64,000 nt of DNA from Fidelibacterota bacterium MT.SAG.2. Lineage in GTDB: Bacteria > Fidelibacterota > SORT01. The DNA lies in NCBI GenBank assembly GCA_004402915.1, contig SORU01000002.1:41286-105285 (forward strand). Direction: 5' to 3'. A program made the position numbers and the translations under genes. The notes beneath the pieces are model-generated. The model was not told the DNA's origin and ran no database searches. It saw nothing but the letters and a program-made list of their open reading frames with translations. Of the stretch, positions 10,025 to 60,122 are shown piece by piece; position 1 is the first letter of the stretch; each line of letters begins with the position of its first letter.

Positions 10025-11215
10025 ATGGCTAAGGAAAAGTTTGAGAGGACAAAGCCACACGTAAATGTCGGTACTATCGGTCACGTTGACCATGGAAAGA
10101 CGACGTTGACCTCGGCGATCACAATGTATTTGAGTAAGAAAGGACTGGCTGACGCCCGTACCTTCGATTCTATTGATAACGCTCCTGAAGAGCGTGAAAG
10201 AGGGATCACCATAGCCACGGCGCACGTCGAGTATGAAACGGAAGCTCGTCATTACGCTCATGTTGACTGTCCCGGTCATGCCGACTATATAAAGAACATG
10301 ATAACGGGTGCCGCTCAGATGGACGGCGCTATCCTTGTGGTCTCCGCAGCTGACGGTCCGATGCCTCAGACTCGCGAGCATGTGCTTCTTGCCCGCCAGG
10401 TCAACGTTCCTTCTATTGTAGTGTATCTGAACAAGATCGATATGGTCGACGATCCCGAACTGATAGAGTTGGTGGAACTCGAGTTAAGAGAGCTTCTCTC
10501 CAAGTATGAGTTCCCGGGCGATGAAATACCTATCATTAAAGGGAGCGCACTCGAGGCGCTCAACAATCCCGATGACGCCGAGAAGACGAAGAGCTTACAG
10601 GAGTTGTTGGATGCGATTGATAATTACATTCCGATCCCTGAGCGTGAGATCGACAAACCCTTTTTAATGCCTGTCGAGGATGTATTCTCCATAACGGGTA
10701 GAGGAACTGTAGGCACAGGCAGGATAGAGCGTGGAGTTGTTACGGTAGGCGAAGAGATGGAGATGGTCGGTCTTAACGCCGAAGGAAAGACTACTATCAC
10801 GGGCGTAGAGATGTTCCGTAAGCTTCTCGACAGAGGCGAGGCAGGCGATAACGTCGGTCTCCTGATGCGTGGAGTCGACAAGGATTATCTGAAACGCGGA
10901 ATGGTCATAGCCAAACCCGGCAGCATTACTCCTCATACGAAGTTCAAGGCTGAGGTATATATCTTGTCGAAAGACGAGGGCGGCCGTCACACACCTTTCT
11001 TCAAGGGCTACAGACCGCAGTTTTATTTTAGGACAACCGATGTGACCGGTTTGGTCGAGCTTCCCGAAGGCACGGAGATGGTAATGCCGGGTGACAGTCT
11101 GAGTCTTGAGATCGAGTTAATAATGCCTATAGCGATGGATAAGGAGTTGCGTTTCGCCATCCGTGAAGGTGGACATACGGTCGGAGCGGGTGTCGTAACG
11201 GAGGTGATAAAGTAG
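10025..11215 (+). CDS. tuf: Elongation factor Tu, copy 1
   Basis: 396 residues. It delivers aminoacyl-tRNA to the ribosomal A site with GTP. G1 '[10 protein letters not shown]', G3 'DCPGHADY' and G4 'NKID' are present, as are domains 2 and 3 ('[12 protein letters not shown]', 'GGRHTPFF'). AGGAGGAG precedes ATG. The protein is identical to tuf copy 2 at 26093, and the reverse-strand shadow ORFs inside both copies are also identical, so the DNA is the same. Identity runs from 10009 to 11225 (26077 to 27293) and stops just outside the gene, which suggests gene conversion. Confidence 0.99.
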
Positions 11216-26092: not shown

Positions 26093-27283
26093 ATGGCTAA
26101 GGAAAAGTTTGAGAGGACAAAGCCACACGTAAATGTCGGTACTATCGGTCACGTTGACCATGGAAAGACGACGTTGACCTCGGCGATCACAATGTATTTG
26201 AGTAAGAAAGGACTGGCTGACGCCCGTACCTTCGATTCTATTGATAACGCTCCTGAAGAGCGTGAAAGAGGGATCACCATAGCCACGGCGCACGTCGAGT
26301 ATGAAACGGAAGCTCGTCATTACGCTCATGTTGACTGTCCCGGTCATGCCGACTATATAAAGAACATGATAACGGGTGCCGCTCAGATGGACGGCGCTAT
26401 CCTTGTGGTCTCCGCAGCTGACGGTCCGATGCCTCAGACTCGCGAGCATGTGCTTCTTGCCCGCCAGGTCAACGTTCCTTCTATTGTAGTGTATCTGAAC
26501 AAGATCGATATGGTCGACGATCCCGAACTGATAGAGTTGGTGGAACTCGAGTTAAGAGAGCTTCTCTCCAAGTATGAGTTCCCGGGCGATGAAATACCTA
26601 TCATTAAAGGGAGCGCACTCGAGGCGCTCAACAATCCCGATGACGCCGAGAAGACGAAGAGCTTACAGGAGTTGTTGGATGCGATTGATAATTACATTCC
26701 GATCCCTGAGCGTGAGATCGACAAACCCTTTTTAATGCCTGTCGAGGATGTATTCTCCATAACGGGTAGAGGAACTGTAGGCACAGGCAGGATAGAGCGT
26801 GGAGTTGTTACGGTAGGCGAAGAGATGGAGATGGTCGGTCTTAACGCCGAAGGAAAGACTACTATCACGGGCGTAGAGATGTTCCGTAAGCTTCTCGACA
26901 GAGGCGAGGCAGGCGATAACGTCGGTCTCCTGATGCGTGGAGTCGACAAGGATTATCTGAAACGCGGAATGGTCATAGCCAAACCCGGCAGCATTACTCC
27001 TCATACGAAGTTCAAGGCTGAGGTATATATCTTGTCGAAAGACGAGGGCGGCCGTCACACACCTTTCTTCAAGGGCTACAGACCGCAGTTTTATTTTAGG
27101 ACAACCGATGTGACCGGTTTGGTCGAGCTTCCCGAAGGCACGGAGATGGTAATGCCGGGTGACAGTCTGAGTCTTGAGATCGAGTTAATAATGCCTATAG
27201 CGATGGATAAGGAGTTGCGTTTCGCCATCCGTGAAGGTGGACATACGGTCGGAGCGGGTGTCGTAACGGAGGTGATAAAGTAG
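26093..27283 (+). CDS. tuf: Elongation factor Tu, copy 2
   Basis: 396 residues, identical in protein to copy 1 at 10025. The flanking CAGGAGGAGATCG and the downstream TTGATGTATT are shared as well, but similarity ends there, so the homogenised tract is about 1.2 kb. It closes the rpsL-rpsG-fusA-tuf string, as in many bacteria. It is separated from rpsJ by a repeat-filled gap of about 220 bases. Confidence 0.99.
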
Positions 27284-50345: not shown

Positions 50346-50759
50346 GTTAAAAAAAGCTTAAAAGGAAAACTCCTGCCGATTGGGTCAGCATCACCGCTTA
50401 CTGCGGGACAATACCATGATCCCATCCTTGTAGGAAGAAGAGGAGATCTCCACCCTGACGGCTACCCTTACGATAAGCTTGAAGTCGGTGATACCATTAC
50501 GTTGCAAGATGATGAACTCGGAATAGACATTACCGCGAGGATCCGATCGAAACGTTGGAACGTGCTTGAACCGCGGGATGCCGAGTTTGAAATAGATAAT
50601 TTCATTGACCGACTCCCGCGCAGACTTAAAAATGATCGGAAAAACCGCAAAAATCTTGATACTAATCTCTCAAACCTGATGGGCAGAAGGGTGGACGACC
50701 GCCAATTAGAGGAGGTAACTCTCGTTGTTAATGTTCGAGAGAATCAGCCTTTGGTTTAA
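50346..50759 (+). pseudogene. Fragment resembling a phage tail protein C-terminus
   Basis: An open frame with no start codon (after TAG 50343) reads 'YHDPILVGRRGDLHPDGYPY' and 'KLEVGDTITLQDDELGIDIT' with 'ARIRSKRWNVLEPRDAEFE'. The pattern 'GDT(V/I)...D..LGID..ARI....(W/Y)(N/D).L.P' is reminiscent of prophage tail-associated baseplate or endopeptidase proteins. Only the 3' part is present and no other phage genes surround it. The track lists only 50502-50759. Confidence 0.35.
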
Positions 50760-50838
50760 CTCCAACTTCTTAAGTAACTAAGCTACAAACTAAAAATATT
50801 TATTCGGTTTCCGTAAATTCAATATAGAAATAAACATG

Positions 50839-50934
50839 GAAATGAAAGTGGAAATAGAGAATACATAAAATTACTCTAAGCATTGGCAAATAAGGGTTAT
50901 AACGTTAGATTAGATAGAAATGAAAGTGGAAATA
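50839..50934 (+). repeat. 18-bp direct repeat GAAATGAAAGTGGAAATA
   Basis: GAAATGAAAGTGGAAATA occurs at 50839-50856 and again at 50917-50934, 78 bases apart, just upstream of the leader-like unit at 50964. The region 50760-50998 has no gene. Confidence 0.6.
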
Positions 50935-50963
50935 AGATGGAACAAAAACCCCTAGATAACGTA

Positions 50964-50969
50964 TATAAT
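50964..50969 (+). promoter_or_regulatory. TATAAT -10 box before the short leader ORF
   Basis: A perfect TATAAT lies 35 bases before the ATG of the ten-codon ORF. No good -35 is seen at 17 bases; the 18-bp direct repeats upstream may be activator sites instead. Confidence 0.4.
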
Positions 50970-50998
50970 ATTGCAAACGAATAGTGAGGATAAAGAAA

Positions 50999-51031
50999 AT
51001 GAAATGGACGGCATACGGGTGGGGATACTAA
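50999..51031 (+). CDS. Ten-residue Trp/Tyr-rich leader peptide
   Basis: ATG at 50999 with GAGGA at 50986-50990 (8-base spacing) encodes MKWTAYGWGY then TAA: two Trp and two Tyr in ten residues. Its 3' half lies in a perfect 8-bp hairpin (ATACGGGT 51013-51020 with ACCCGTAT 51031-51038), followed by a strong terminator at 51058 and then the TauE/SafE gene. This layout is that of an attenuation leader, in which stalling at Trp or Tyr codons would change folding. Too short for the track; it could also be chance. Confidence 0.4.
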   Translation: MKWTAYGWGY

Positions 51032-51057
51032 CCCGTATTGATAAAATAAGAAAATGA

Positions 51058-51090
51058 AGCCCCGAGGAAACTCGGGGCTTTTTATTTTCT
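51058..51090 (+). terminator. Strong intrinsic terminator before the TauE/SafE gene
   Basis: AGCCCCGAG, loop GAAA, CTCGGGGCT, then TTTTTATTTT: a perfect 9-bp GC-rich stem with a tetraloop and U-tract. It lies 50 bases before the transporter start, so it can act as an attenuator for that gene. Confidence 0.85.
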
Positions 51091-51140
51091 CCGAATAGCC
51101 ATATATTCACTTCTCGGTAACAATAAATGCGAATGAATAT

Positions 51141-51929
51141 ATGTTAATGTATCTGACTGTAATGGTTGCCGCGCTTGCGGTGGCTGCTTTGACTCTCATT
51201 TCCGGATTTGGTATCGGAACCCTTCTGATGCCGGTCTTCGCGATTTTCTTTCCGATAGAGGCGGCGGTGGCAATGACAGCGGTAGTGCATCTCTCAAATA
51301 ATCTGTTTAAAACGGCGCTTGTCGGTAAGCACGCTGATTGGAGCATTGCACTGCGATTTATAATTCCCGGACTGCTCTTTTCCGCGTTCGGCGCTTATTT
51401 ATTGACTCGAATGGCTGTATCCGAGCCTGTTTATTCGTACGAATTCTATGGCGCTCGTGATATGACGCTTATCAAATTGGTCATCGCGGCGCTTATGCTG
51501 CTTTTTGCGATTTTGGAGTTTTCCAAACGATTTGAAGGGCTGGCATTTCCGAAGAAATATATTCCGCTTGGCGGCGCTCTTTCGGGCTTTTTCGGTGGGC
51601 TTTCGGGTCATCAGGGAGCGCTCCGCAGCGCCTTTCTCATCCGTTCTATCGATGATAAAGCCAAGTTTATCGGGACGGGAGTCGTCTGTTCGGTTGTGGT
51701 TGACCTGTCGCGTGTTGCCGTATACGGCACTTTGTTTTTCGGAGGAACCCTGACAACTATTGTTGATTCGGGAGGGTTGAATCTTATATCAGCAGCCGTT
51801 TTGACGGCTTTTCTCGGTTCTTTTATTGGTAATCGCTTTATGAAGAAGGTGAAGATGCGCCATGTTCGAAATTTAGTCGGATGGATGCTGCTCACTGTCG
51901 CTCTGCTTCTTGGCAGCGGTATGATATAG
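51141..51929 (+). CDS. TauE/SafE-family transporter
   Basis: 262 residues with seven or eight membrane helices, typical of the sulfite/organosulfonate exporter family (DUF81). The two conserved Gly-rich repeats are visible: 'ALTLISGFGIGTLLMPVFAI' and 'GGALSGFFGGLSGHQGALRS'. Members export or import sulfite, sulfoacetate, taurine-derived or other anions; the substrate is unknown. It starts ATG 51141 after a terminator and leader-like ORF. No sulfur genes are adjacent. Confidence 0.9.
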   Translation: MLMYLTVMVAALAVAALTLISGFGIGTLLMPVFAIFFPIEAAVAMTAVVHLSNNLFKTALVGKHADWSIALRFIIPGLLFSAFGAYLLTRMAVSEPVYSYEFYGARDMTLIKLVIAALMLLFAILEFSKRFEGLAFPKKYIPLGGALSGFFGGLSGHQGALRSAFLIRSIDDKAKFIGTGVVCSVVVDLSRVAVYGTLFFGGTLTTIVDSGGLNLISAAVLTAFLGSFIGNRFMKKVKMRHVRNLVGWMLLTVALLLGSGMI

Positions 51930-58623: not shown

Positions 58624-59544
58624 TCAATCCTCGAAGATGAACTCTACAAACCCGATGGATGCTTCAATATCCATGACCAATTCGCCTTCTGTTTCACCCC
58701 AATTGGGACTTTCGTACACGTCATCTTCGACTTCAATGAGATCTTTCGTGTCAAATGAGGTGAATGCCGATACGTCGGCGTAGATTTTTACACCGATATT
58801 TCGTGGTAAAATTATTATCGTGGAGCTTATGCTGAGCTCCATCTGCACGTAACATTTTTCCGTTGTCTCGCCTGTGAAATCCAATGTACTTTTGCCAAGA
58901 CCACCCTCTATGGTCATATTCTCGAAATTTGCGTTGAGGAGATGTTTACCCCTGAACTTTGCCAGTCCCAGGGATATATTGAACTCCGACATCCTGATAG
59001 GATTGGGTTCATCAAAACTGATGAATGTCTTACTCGCGCCTGTTTCTATGTTGAGATTGCTAATCATCATGCCGGTGAAATCGAAATTTCCTTTAGTGGC
59101 GCCGGAGAATAAGTTAATATTTAAGGGAACTTTATCCGTGAATTTCAGATCCCATGAAGTCTTTTTTACCGATGAAAGTCCAATGTTTACATCATCTCCA
59201 TCAAAATCGAATTTGAAATTATCGTCGTTGAATTCGAAATCATCGTCCTCGTATTCCTCATCTTTAGATATGAGCCTGAAGGAGAGCGAAGGATCATCGC
59301 TGTCATACCTGAATCTCGGCCGCATTTCTTCGCTGTTATATTCAACTTCGATCATGAAGAGTTTGTCATATGGCGATTTAGTGAACCAGACCTTACCGCC
59401 GTTAAGTTGCAAATTCACTTCAAGACTTTCCTGATCGGCTAGATCCACTTCTTCAGAAAAGACCGACATCCTTTGTGCGTAAAGATTTCCGGCGCTGAGT
59501 GATAGAAAAATGGCAATGCTTAATATATATAGCTGCATCTTCAT
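58624..59544 (-). CDS. Exported beta-solenoid-like (toast-rack / DUF4097-type) protein
   Basis: 306 residues with signal peptide 'LYILSIAIFLSLSAGNLYAQ'. The mature part is a series of short beta strands with alternating polar residues ('KVPLNINLFSGATKGNFDFT', 'ISNLNIETGASKTFISF', 'MTIEGGLGKSTLDFTGE'), the pattern of toast-rack/DUF4097 right-handed beta structures that often accompany signal-transduction genes. A very acidic loop, 'EDDDFEFNDDNFKFDFDGDD', interrupts it. It overlaps the ECF sigma gene by ATGA and is therefore coexpressed; it may sense envelope state. No membrane-spanning anti-sigma is next to it. Confidence 0.7.
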   Translation of the reverse strand: MKMQLYILSIAIFLSLSAGNLYAQRMSVFSEEVDLADQESLEVNLQLNGGKVWFTKSPYDKLFMIEVEYNSEEMRPRFRYDSDDPSLSFRLISKDEEYEDDDFEFNDDNFKFDFDGDDVNIGLSSVKKTSWDLKFTDKVPLNINLFSGATKGNFDFTGMMISNLNIETGASKTFISFDEPNPIRMSEFNISLGLAKFRGKHLLNANFENMTIEGGLGKSTLDFTGETTEKCYVQMELSISSTIIILPRNIGVKIYADVSAFTSFDTKDLIEVEDDVYESPNWGETEGELVMDIEASIGFVEFIFED

Positions 59545-60122
59545 CTTAGATTCATTTTCGACAGCGATTTTTTCAATATTTCACGGGCGCGAAAGATGCG
59601 CGCTTTTACAGTGCCTATCGGCAATTCAAGCTCAATGGCGATCTCGTCGTAGCTCCTGTCCTGCTTGTGCCTCAAATTTATAACCTCTCTGTATTTTTCC
59701 GGTAGTTGATCAATCACGTTGTGGATGTTATTGATCATCTCGTTCCTTATTACGTCTGTCTCCGGATTGTAAGAGCTGTCCGGAATGTCCTGGGTTATAC
59801 TTCCATCCTTTGTCACAATAGGGGTATCAATTGACGTCGTGTTCAAACGCCTTTTCCTCAGGTGATCGATACAATTGTTCGATGCGATCTTGAATAGCCA
59901 CGTACTGAAGGAATACTGCTTATTGAAAGATTCAAGCGCATTATATGCCTTGATGAAAGCCTCCTGAACGAGGTCTTGTGTCTCTTCCTGGTTCCGGACC
60001 ATTCTGTAGATAATACCGTGGAGGGAATTCTTGTATCGCTCCATGATGATACCGTATGCCGCTTCGTTTCCATTAATTGCCTCATCTATCAATTCGTAAT
60101 CGGTTTTATCTTCACTGTTCAT
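59541..60122 (-). CDS. ECF (RpoE-like) sigma factor
   Basis: 193 residues. Region 2 is 'ETQDLVQEAFIKAYNALESF' with 'FSTWLFKIASNNCIDHLRKR'; region 4 is 'LPEKYREVINLRHKQDRSYD' with 'LELPIGTVKARIFRAREILK'. Sigma-3 is missing, as in all ECF factors. It redirects RNA polymerase to stress or envelope promoters. Its partner gene by overlap is the toast-rack-like exported protein and not the usual zinc-finger anti-sigma. The linker of about 30 residues between regions is of ordinary length. Confidence 0.93.
   Translation of the reverse strand: MNSEDKTDYELIDEAINGNEAAYGIIMERYKNSLHGIIYRMVRNQEETQDLVQEAFIKAYNALESFNKQYSFSTWLFKIASNNCIDHLRKRRLNTTSIDTPIVTKDGSITQDIPDSSYNPETDVIRNEMINNIHNVIDQLPEKYREVINLRHKQDRSYDEIAIELELPIGTVKARIFRAREILKKSLSKMNLR

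What the first reader, a model, noticed from the sequence alone, without database searches (positions are those of the whole stretch)
50964..51141. Possible new attenuation leader: MKWTAYGWGY, hairpin, terminator, TauE/SafE transporter
A TATAAT, a GAGGA ribosome site, a ten-codon ORF with two Trp and two Tyr, a perfect hairpin overlapping its end (51013-51038), and a perfect terminator (51058-51090) stand in order before a transporter gene. This is how amino-acid attenuators are built, yet the downstream gene is not an aromatic biosynthesis gene. The transporter might carry an aromatic compound or anion.
Basis: partly seen in the sequence, partly recalled or inferred. Interest (0 to 1): 0.65.

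Follow-up and report, generated by a model that had tools for sequence, protein, structure and literature searches.

The report
Conserved tiny RNA gene, not attenuator
A ~115-base unit with its own conserved promoter, a ten-codon reading frame, a hairpin and a strong stop signal is kept in four related marine bacteria, but it lacks the switch of an amino-acid attenuator and looks more like a small stand-alone RNA gene between phage-tail genes and a transporter gene.

Summary
The parts described are really there, and the hairpin plus terminator fold far better than shuffles (z -5.55). The same unit occurs in 4 of 5 held genomes of one Neomarinimicrobiota family. No true copy was found in the phylum's other held genomes, in viral contigs, or in other species of genome contigs.

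Two boxes, GGAACAAA-N13-CGTATATA, are invariant in the four genomes while their spacer is not. They resemble an ECF-sigma promoter rather than a TATAAT one (inference). Hairpin arms and terminator are nearly invariant, although tauE silent sites are saturated between genera.

The attenuator reading fails its main tests. The terminator has no competing antiterminator: a gap of 15-21 kcal/mol in every state, against 5.8 for stalled E. coli trpL. Trp3 is not conserved (W/W/R/A). The constant Tyr6 and Trp8 codons lie in the hairpin arm. tauE relatives in other families lack the unit, and in one genome 834 nt separate terminator and tauE.

In three relatives the unit follows a siphovirus-type tail cluster, truncated in the window genome. 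Best reading: an independent, terminated small RNA or mini-mRNA. A non-classical tauE leader remains possible. No transcript evidence exists.

The parts
50939..50946 (+). GGAACAAA, putative -35 box (ECF type, inferred)
   Evidence: identical in G000, G001, G003, G004; 13-nt spacer behind it only 51% identical
50960..50967 (+).
   Evidence: identical in four genomes at fixed spacing; one match of GGAACA-N14-16-CGTATA in G000, no excess over control in five genomes
50986..50990 (+). Shine-Dalgarno GAGGA
   Evidence: AGGA at fixed distance from ATG in all four genomes
50999..51031 (+). ten-codon ORF MKWTAYGWGY*
   Evidence: in frame with stop in four genomes: MKWTAYGWGY, MEWTAYGWAH, MKRTMYGWAY, MEATAYGWAY
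51013..51038 (+). hairpin AUACGGGU-10 nt-ACCCGUAU overlapping the ORF's end
   Evidence: arms 94-100% identical, 7 of 8 pairs never vary, one A-U to G-U
51056..51090 (+). intrinsic terminator, 11-bp stem and U tract
   Evidence: about -18 to -21 kcal/mol in all four genomes
51141..51929 (+). TauE/SafE-family transporter gene, next gene downstream
   Evidence: PF01925; orthologues at 87, 73 and 69% identity in G001, G003, G004
50450..50759 (+). 3' remnant of a phage tail-tip gene (Prophage_tail), neighbour of the unit
   Evidence: 56% identical to the last ~100 codons of the 637-aa gene in G004; full gene in G001, G003, G004

Best explanation
The element is a self-contained small transcription unit. 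Shown: invariant promoter-like boxes, a Shine-Dalgarno and ten-codon ORF, a hairpin and a strong intrinsic terminator, kept by selection in one Neomarinimicrobiota family. Inferred: an alternative (ECF-type) sigma factor starts a ~115-nt RNA at about 50972 that normally ends at 51085-51090, and this RNA acts as a small regulatory RNA, a mini-mRNA, or both. Ribosomes on the ten codons would melt the hairpin and ribosome-free RNA would form it, so translation could set the availability of the hairpin but not the fate of the terminator. Where the phage-tail operon is still present, the unit also forms its 3' end and shares its terminator. tauE is at most reached by read-through.
For: Own conserved promoter-like boxes and terminator in four species. 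Terminator folds in every state tested, with no competing fold (control). Unit kept in G004 although 834 nt of repeat-rich DNA separate it from tauE. tauE relatives in families f15 and f9 lack it. Parts intact in the window genome although the upstream tail cluster is gone. Coding frame has the most synonymous changes: 13 of 31 differing codon pairs against 2 of 30 and 8 of 31.
Against: No transcript data. tauE is the next gene, in the same orientation, in all four genomes, and only 51-93 nt from the terminator in three; no separate tauE promoter was identified. No target was found; pairing with the tauE start is not better than shuffled. The boxes are assigned to ECF sigma factors by resemblance only, and no wider regulon with the same boxes is seen.
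Confidence: 0.5

Rival explanations
1. Cis-acting leader of tauE with conditional read-through by something other than a classical antiterminator, for example a protein that binds the 51013-51038 hairpin or the polymerase.
For: tauE follows in the same orientation in all four genomes; gap of only 51-93 nt in three; the hairpin is nearly invariant.
Against: 834 nt lie between terminator and tauE in G004; no competing fold; no such unit before tauE relatives of other families.
Confidence: 0.26
2. Mainly the end of the upstream phage-tail operon: its terminator with an accidental promoter and ORF in its 3' untranslated region.
For: Same family-limited distribution as the tail cluster; 17 nt after the tail gene in G004; no other strong terminator between tail gene and unit.
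Against: The boxes, Shine-Dalgarno, ORF and first hairpin are not needed for a terminator yet are conserved at saturation of silent sites, and all remain in the window genome, where the tail cluster is truncated.
Confidence: 0.14
3. Ribosome-mediated amino-acid (Trp/Tyr) attenuator of tauE.
For: Order of parts: promoter, Shine-Dalgarno, ORF with Trp and Tyr codons, hairpin, terminator, gene. Tyr6 and Trp8 are constant in four species.
Against: No antiterminator in any species or ribosome position: gap 15-21 kcal/mol against 5.8 for stalled trpL. Trp3 and Tyr10 vary. Tyr6 and Trp8 are explained by the hairpin arm. Trp_leader scores 20.1 against a cut-off of 41.
Confidence: 0.05

Closest known systems
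sigma-E (RpoE)-dependent small RNAs of E. coli, especially MicL (also MicA, RybB)
   Same: Short RNA from a promoter with a GGAAC-type -35 box and, for MicL, in the 3' region of another gene (PMC8103513).
   Different: Here a Shine-Dalgarno and ten-codon ORF are conserved; no sigma factor, Hfq binding or target has been shown; no sequence relation.
trp operon leader (trpL) and its trans-acting RNA rnTrpL of Sinorhizobium
   Same: Short ORF with aromatic codons, hairpin and terminator before a gene; rnTrpL shows that such an RNA and its peptide can act in trans (PMC7298713).
   Different: No antiterminator; control codons not conserved as a set; the downstream gene is a transporter, not a biosynthesis gene.

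Membership tests
ribosome-mediated amino-acid attenuator | mutually exclusive antiterminator and terminator folds | tested here: not met
   gap 15-21 kcal/mol in four species and three ribosome states; trpL control 5.8 when stalled
ribosome-mediated amino-acid attenuator | conserved run of control codons for the regulated amino acid | tested here: not met
   codon 3 W/W/R/A, codon 10 Y/H/Y/Y; Tyr6 and Trp8 constant but inside the invariant hairpin arm
ribosome-mediated amino-acid attenuator | translated short ORF upstream of the terminator | tested here: inconclusive
   Shine-Dalgarno, start, frame and stop kept in four species; translation itself not shown
ribosome-mediated amino-acid attenuator | downstream gene makes, charges or moves the sensed amino acid | tested here: inconclusive
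   TauE/SafE family; substrate unknown
ECF-sigma-dependent small RNA | ECF-type promoter | tested here: inconclusive
   invariant GGAAC-N16-CGTATA in four species; sigma factor not identified; no regulon above control
ECF-sigma-dependent small RNA | short RNA ended by an intrinsic terminator | tested here: met
   predicted RNA of 113-118 nt with a strong terminator in four species; sequence prediction only
ECF-sigma-dependent small RNA | base-pairing target or protein partner | tested here: inconclusive
   only the tauE start region was tried, no signal
any Rfam release 15 family | match at the curated gathering score | tested here: not met
   none over 50939-51092 at gathering score; only sub-threshold hits with relaxed settings

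The most novel reading that the evidence does not exclude
A dual-function RNA in an uncultured marine phylum: an ECF-driven ~115-nt RNA that encodes a conserved ten-residue peptide (MxxTxYGWxY) and links a stress sigma factor to a domesticated, headless phage-tail (tailocin-like) cluster or to the TauE transporter.
Probability: 0.13. Interest if true: 0.62.

Novelty: new member of a known kind. Interest (0 to 1): 0.36.

Why it matters
Small RNAs seem hardly studied in Neomarinimicrobiota: a library search for Marinimicrobia plus small RNA gave three papers with one passing mention each. A family-restricted, strongly conserved short unit with a defined promoter-like pair of boxes and a ten-codon ORF is a concrete, testable candidate. 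It also shows why an attenuator-like order of parts should not be taken as an attenuator unless an antiterminator can form.

Tried and rejected
A covariance model of the whole unit hit 40 further genomes of the phylum weakly; the ten best alignments match mainly through a common AAAGCCCCGA-type terminator and were rejected. A model without the terminator left two marginal hits (E 0.002 and 0.01 per genome over 245 genomes), taken as chance. Free-phage origin: the tail gene has no match in phage records or viral contigs, and the one phage hit of the unit covers 28% of it, the end with the terminator. Attachment site: no second strong copy of the unit in the four genomes, so no att duplication is seen. 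Base pairing of the RNA with the tauE start is not better than shuffled. Covariation: the helices vary too little to test. An ECF regulon with the same boxes is not seen above control. Selenocysteine at the ORF's TGA in G001 was dropped, because the other three genomes have TAA. A search for GGAAAT-type repeats upstream of the promoter was attempted with a wrong strand setting and not repeated.

Full report
Observation. All the parts listed are in the sequence: GAGGA, the ten-codon ORF 50999-51031, the perfect hairpin 51013-51038, the terminator at about 51056-51090 and a TauE/SafE gene from 51141. The segment folds at -39.2 kcal/mol against -21.7 +/- 3.2 for shuffles. It is a single copy in the window's assembly, which is 67% complete. 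The one named record with the unit belongs to Candidatus Neomarinimicrobiota.

Conservation. The unit occurs in three further genomes of the same family (G001, G003, G004), each time between the same upstream gene and tauE. The fifth family member, G002, is 69% complete and has no match to tauE either. In 245 genomes of the phylum no other true copy was found by a hairpin pattern with up to three mismatches or by two covariance models; the weak hits that I inspected are terminators of a common type. An exact-pattern scan of viral contigs found none, and one of genome contigs found only G001's record.

What is under selection. GGAACAAA and CGTATATA are identical in all four species at fixed distance, while the 13-nt spacer between them is 51% identical. 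The hairpin arms are 94-100% and the terminator 87% identical. Four-fold degenerate sites of tauE are only 33-37% identical between the genera, so silent sites are near saturation. GGAAC-N16-CGTATA resembles promoters of ECF sigma factors; GGAACTT is the -35 box of E. coli RpoE (PMC8103513). The assignment is inference.

The ORF. The four products are MKWTAYGWGY, MEWTAYGWAH, MKRTMYGWAY and MEATAYGWAY: ten codons each, a Shine-Dalgarno at fixed distance, and a stop kept as TAA or TGA. In the coding frame 13 of 31 differing codon pairs are synonymous (stops counted), against 2 of 30 and 8 of 31 in the other frames. This favours translation, but the sites are few. The constant Tyr-Gly-Trp lies in the invariant hairpin arm, so it cannot be credited to the peptide. 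Trp3 is not conserved.

Attenuator test. With constrained folding I compared the best fold with the best fold in which the terminator's 3' arm is unpaired, for free RNA, for a ribosome up to the hairpin's 5' arm, and for a ribosome on the stop codon. The gap is 15-21 kcal/mol in all four species. The same computation on the E. coli trp leader taken from NC_000913 gives 5.8 kcal/mol and a 2:3-type antiterminator when the ribosome is held on the Trp codons, and 14.8 when it is at the stop. A ribosome on the ORF's stop covers the hairpin but not the terminator, which starts 27-32 nt further on. Translation can therefore act on the hairpin but not on the terminator.

Neighbours. In G001, G003 and G004 the unit directly follows tail genes: a distal-tail (Dit-like) protein and a tail-tip protein (Prophage_tail, PF06605), the latter 64-66% identical between genera. 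Further up in G004 and G001 lie a phrog_2175 protein, a tail-completion-like protein and others. No portal protein (PF04860) was found in any of the five genomes. In G001 the cluster begins near a radical-SAM gene, with no recognised capsid, portal or terminase gene between as far as the contig shows. This suggests a headless, F-type tailocin-like cluster; contig breaks and the few families searched leave it open. The tail-tip gene has no match in the other 95 genomes searched besides G002, nor in phage records or viral contigs. In the window genome about its last 100 codons remain (50450-50759), yet the unit is intact. In G004 the unit starts 17 nt after the tail gene, and 834 nt of repeat-rich DNA separate its terminator from tauE. 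The upstream regions of tauE relatives in families f15 and f9 show no such unit.

Mechanism. The most likely reading is a small, self-terminating transcription unit read by an alternative sigma factor, giving a ~115-nt RNA that acts as a regulatory RNA, as a mini-mRNA, or as both. Shown: the parts, their conservation and the missing antiterminator. Inferred: transcription, the sigma factor, translation and any target. A tauE leader with an unknown read-through factor is the main rival.

Standing. No Rfam family matches. The closest in layout are sigma-E-dependent small RNAs such as MicL, and the trp leader RNA rnTrpL, whose RNA and peptide act in trans (PMC8103513, PMC7298713). The library searches made found nothing on this unit.

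Noticed in passing
L080 7178-17180 (G004), L079 7480-14204 and L101 4493-9102 (G001), L081 3-4232 (G003); remnant window 50450-50759: Siphovirus-type tail gene cluster at the same place in three genera, without recognised head genes so far (tailocin-like), truncated in the window genome; no match in phage or viral collections.
   Followed up: partly
L037 1104-1457 (+) and L038 2264-2623 (-): Directly upstream of the tauE relatives in two f9 genomes is an ArsC-like arsenate reductase gene with in-frame TGA at the place of the catalytic Cys (YHNPRUSK / YHNTRUSK), a likely selenoprotein; tRNA-Sec is present in both genomes and in G000 and G001.
   Followed up: partly
window 58624-60122 (-): A SigW-like ECF sigma factor followed by a toast_rack-like (PF17115) protein, 8 kb from the unit; a candidate reader of its promoter, though its own upstream region lacks the same boxes.
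   Followed up: partly
window 10025-11215 and 26093-27283 (+): Two tuf (EF-Tu) genes with identical 396-aa products.
   Followed up: no
L035 2400-3080 (G004, - strand): Repeat-rich stretch between terminator and tauE with recurring CTCCCCTTGAGGGGAGTACTCCGAAGGAGGGAGG-like copies; BLAST shows related copies elsewhere in G004's locus and near window 49100.
   Followed up: no
window 50820-50940; L003 1680-1820 (- strand); L005 1260-1400: Recurring GGAAAT motifs, some 12 bp apart, just upstream of the promoter boxes in G000, G001 and G003 but not in G004; perhaps regulator sites.
   Followed up: no
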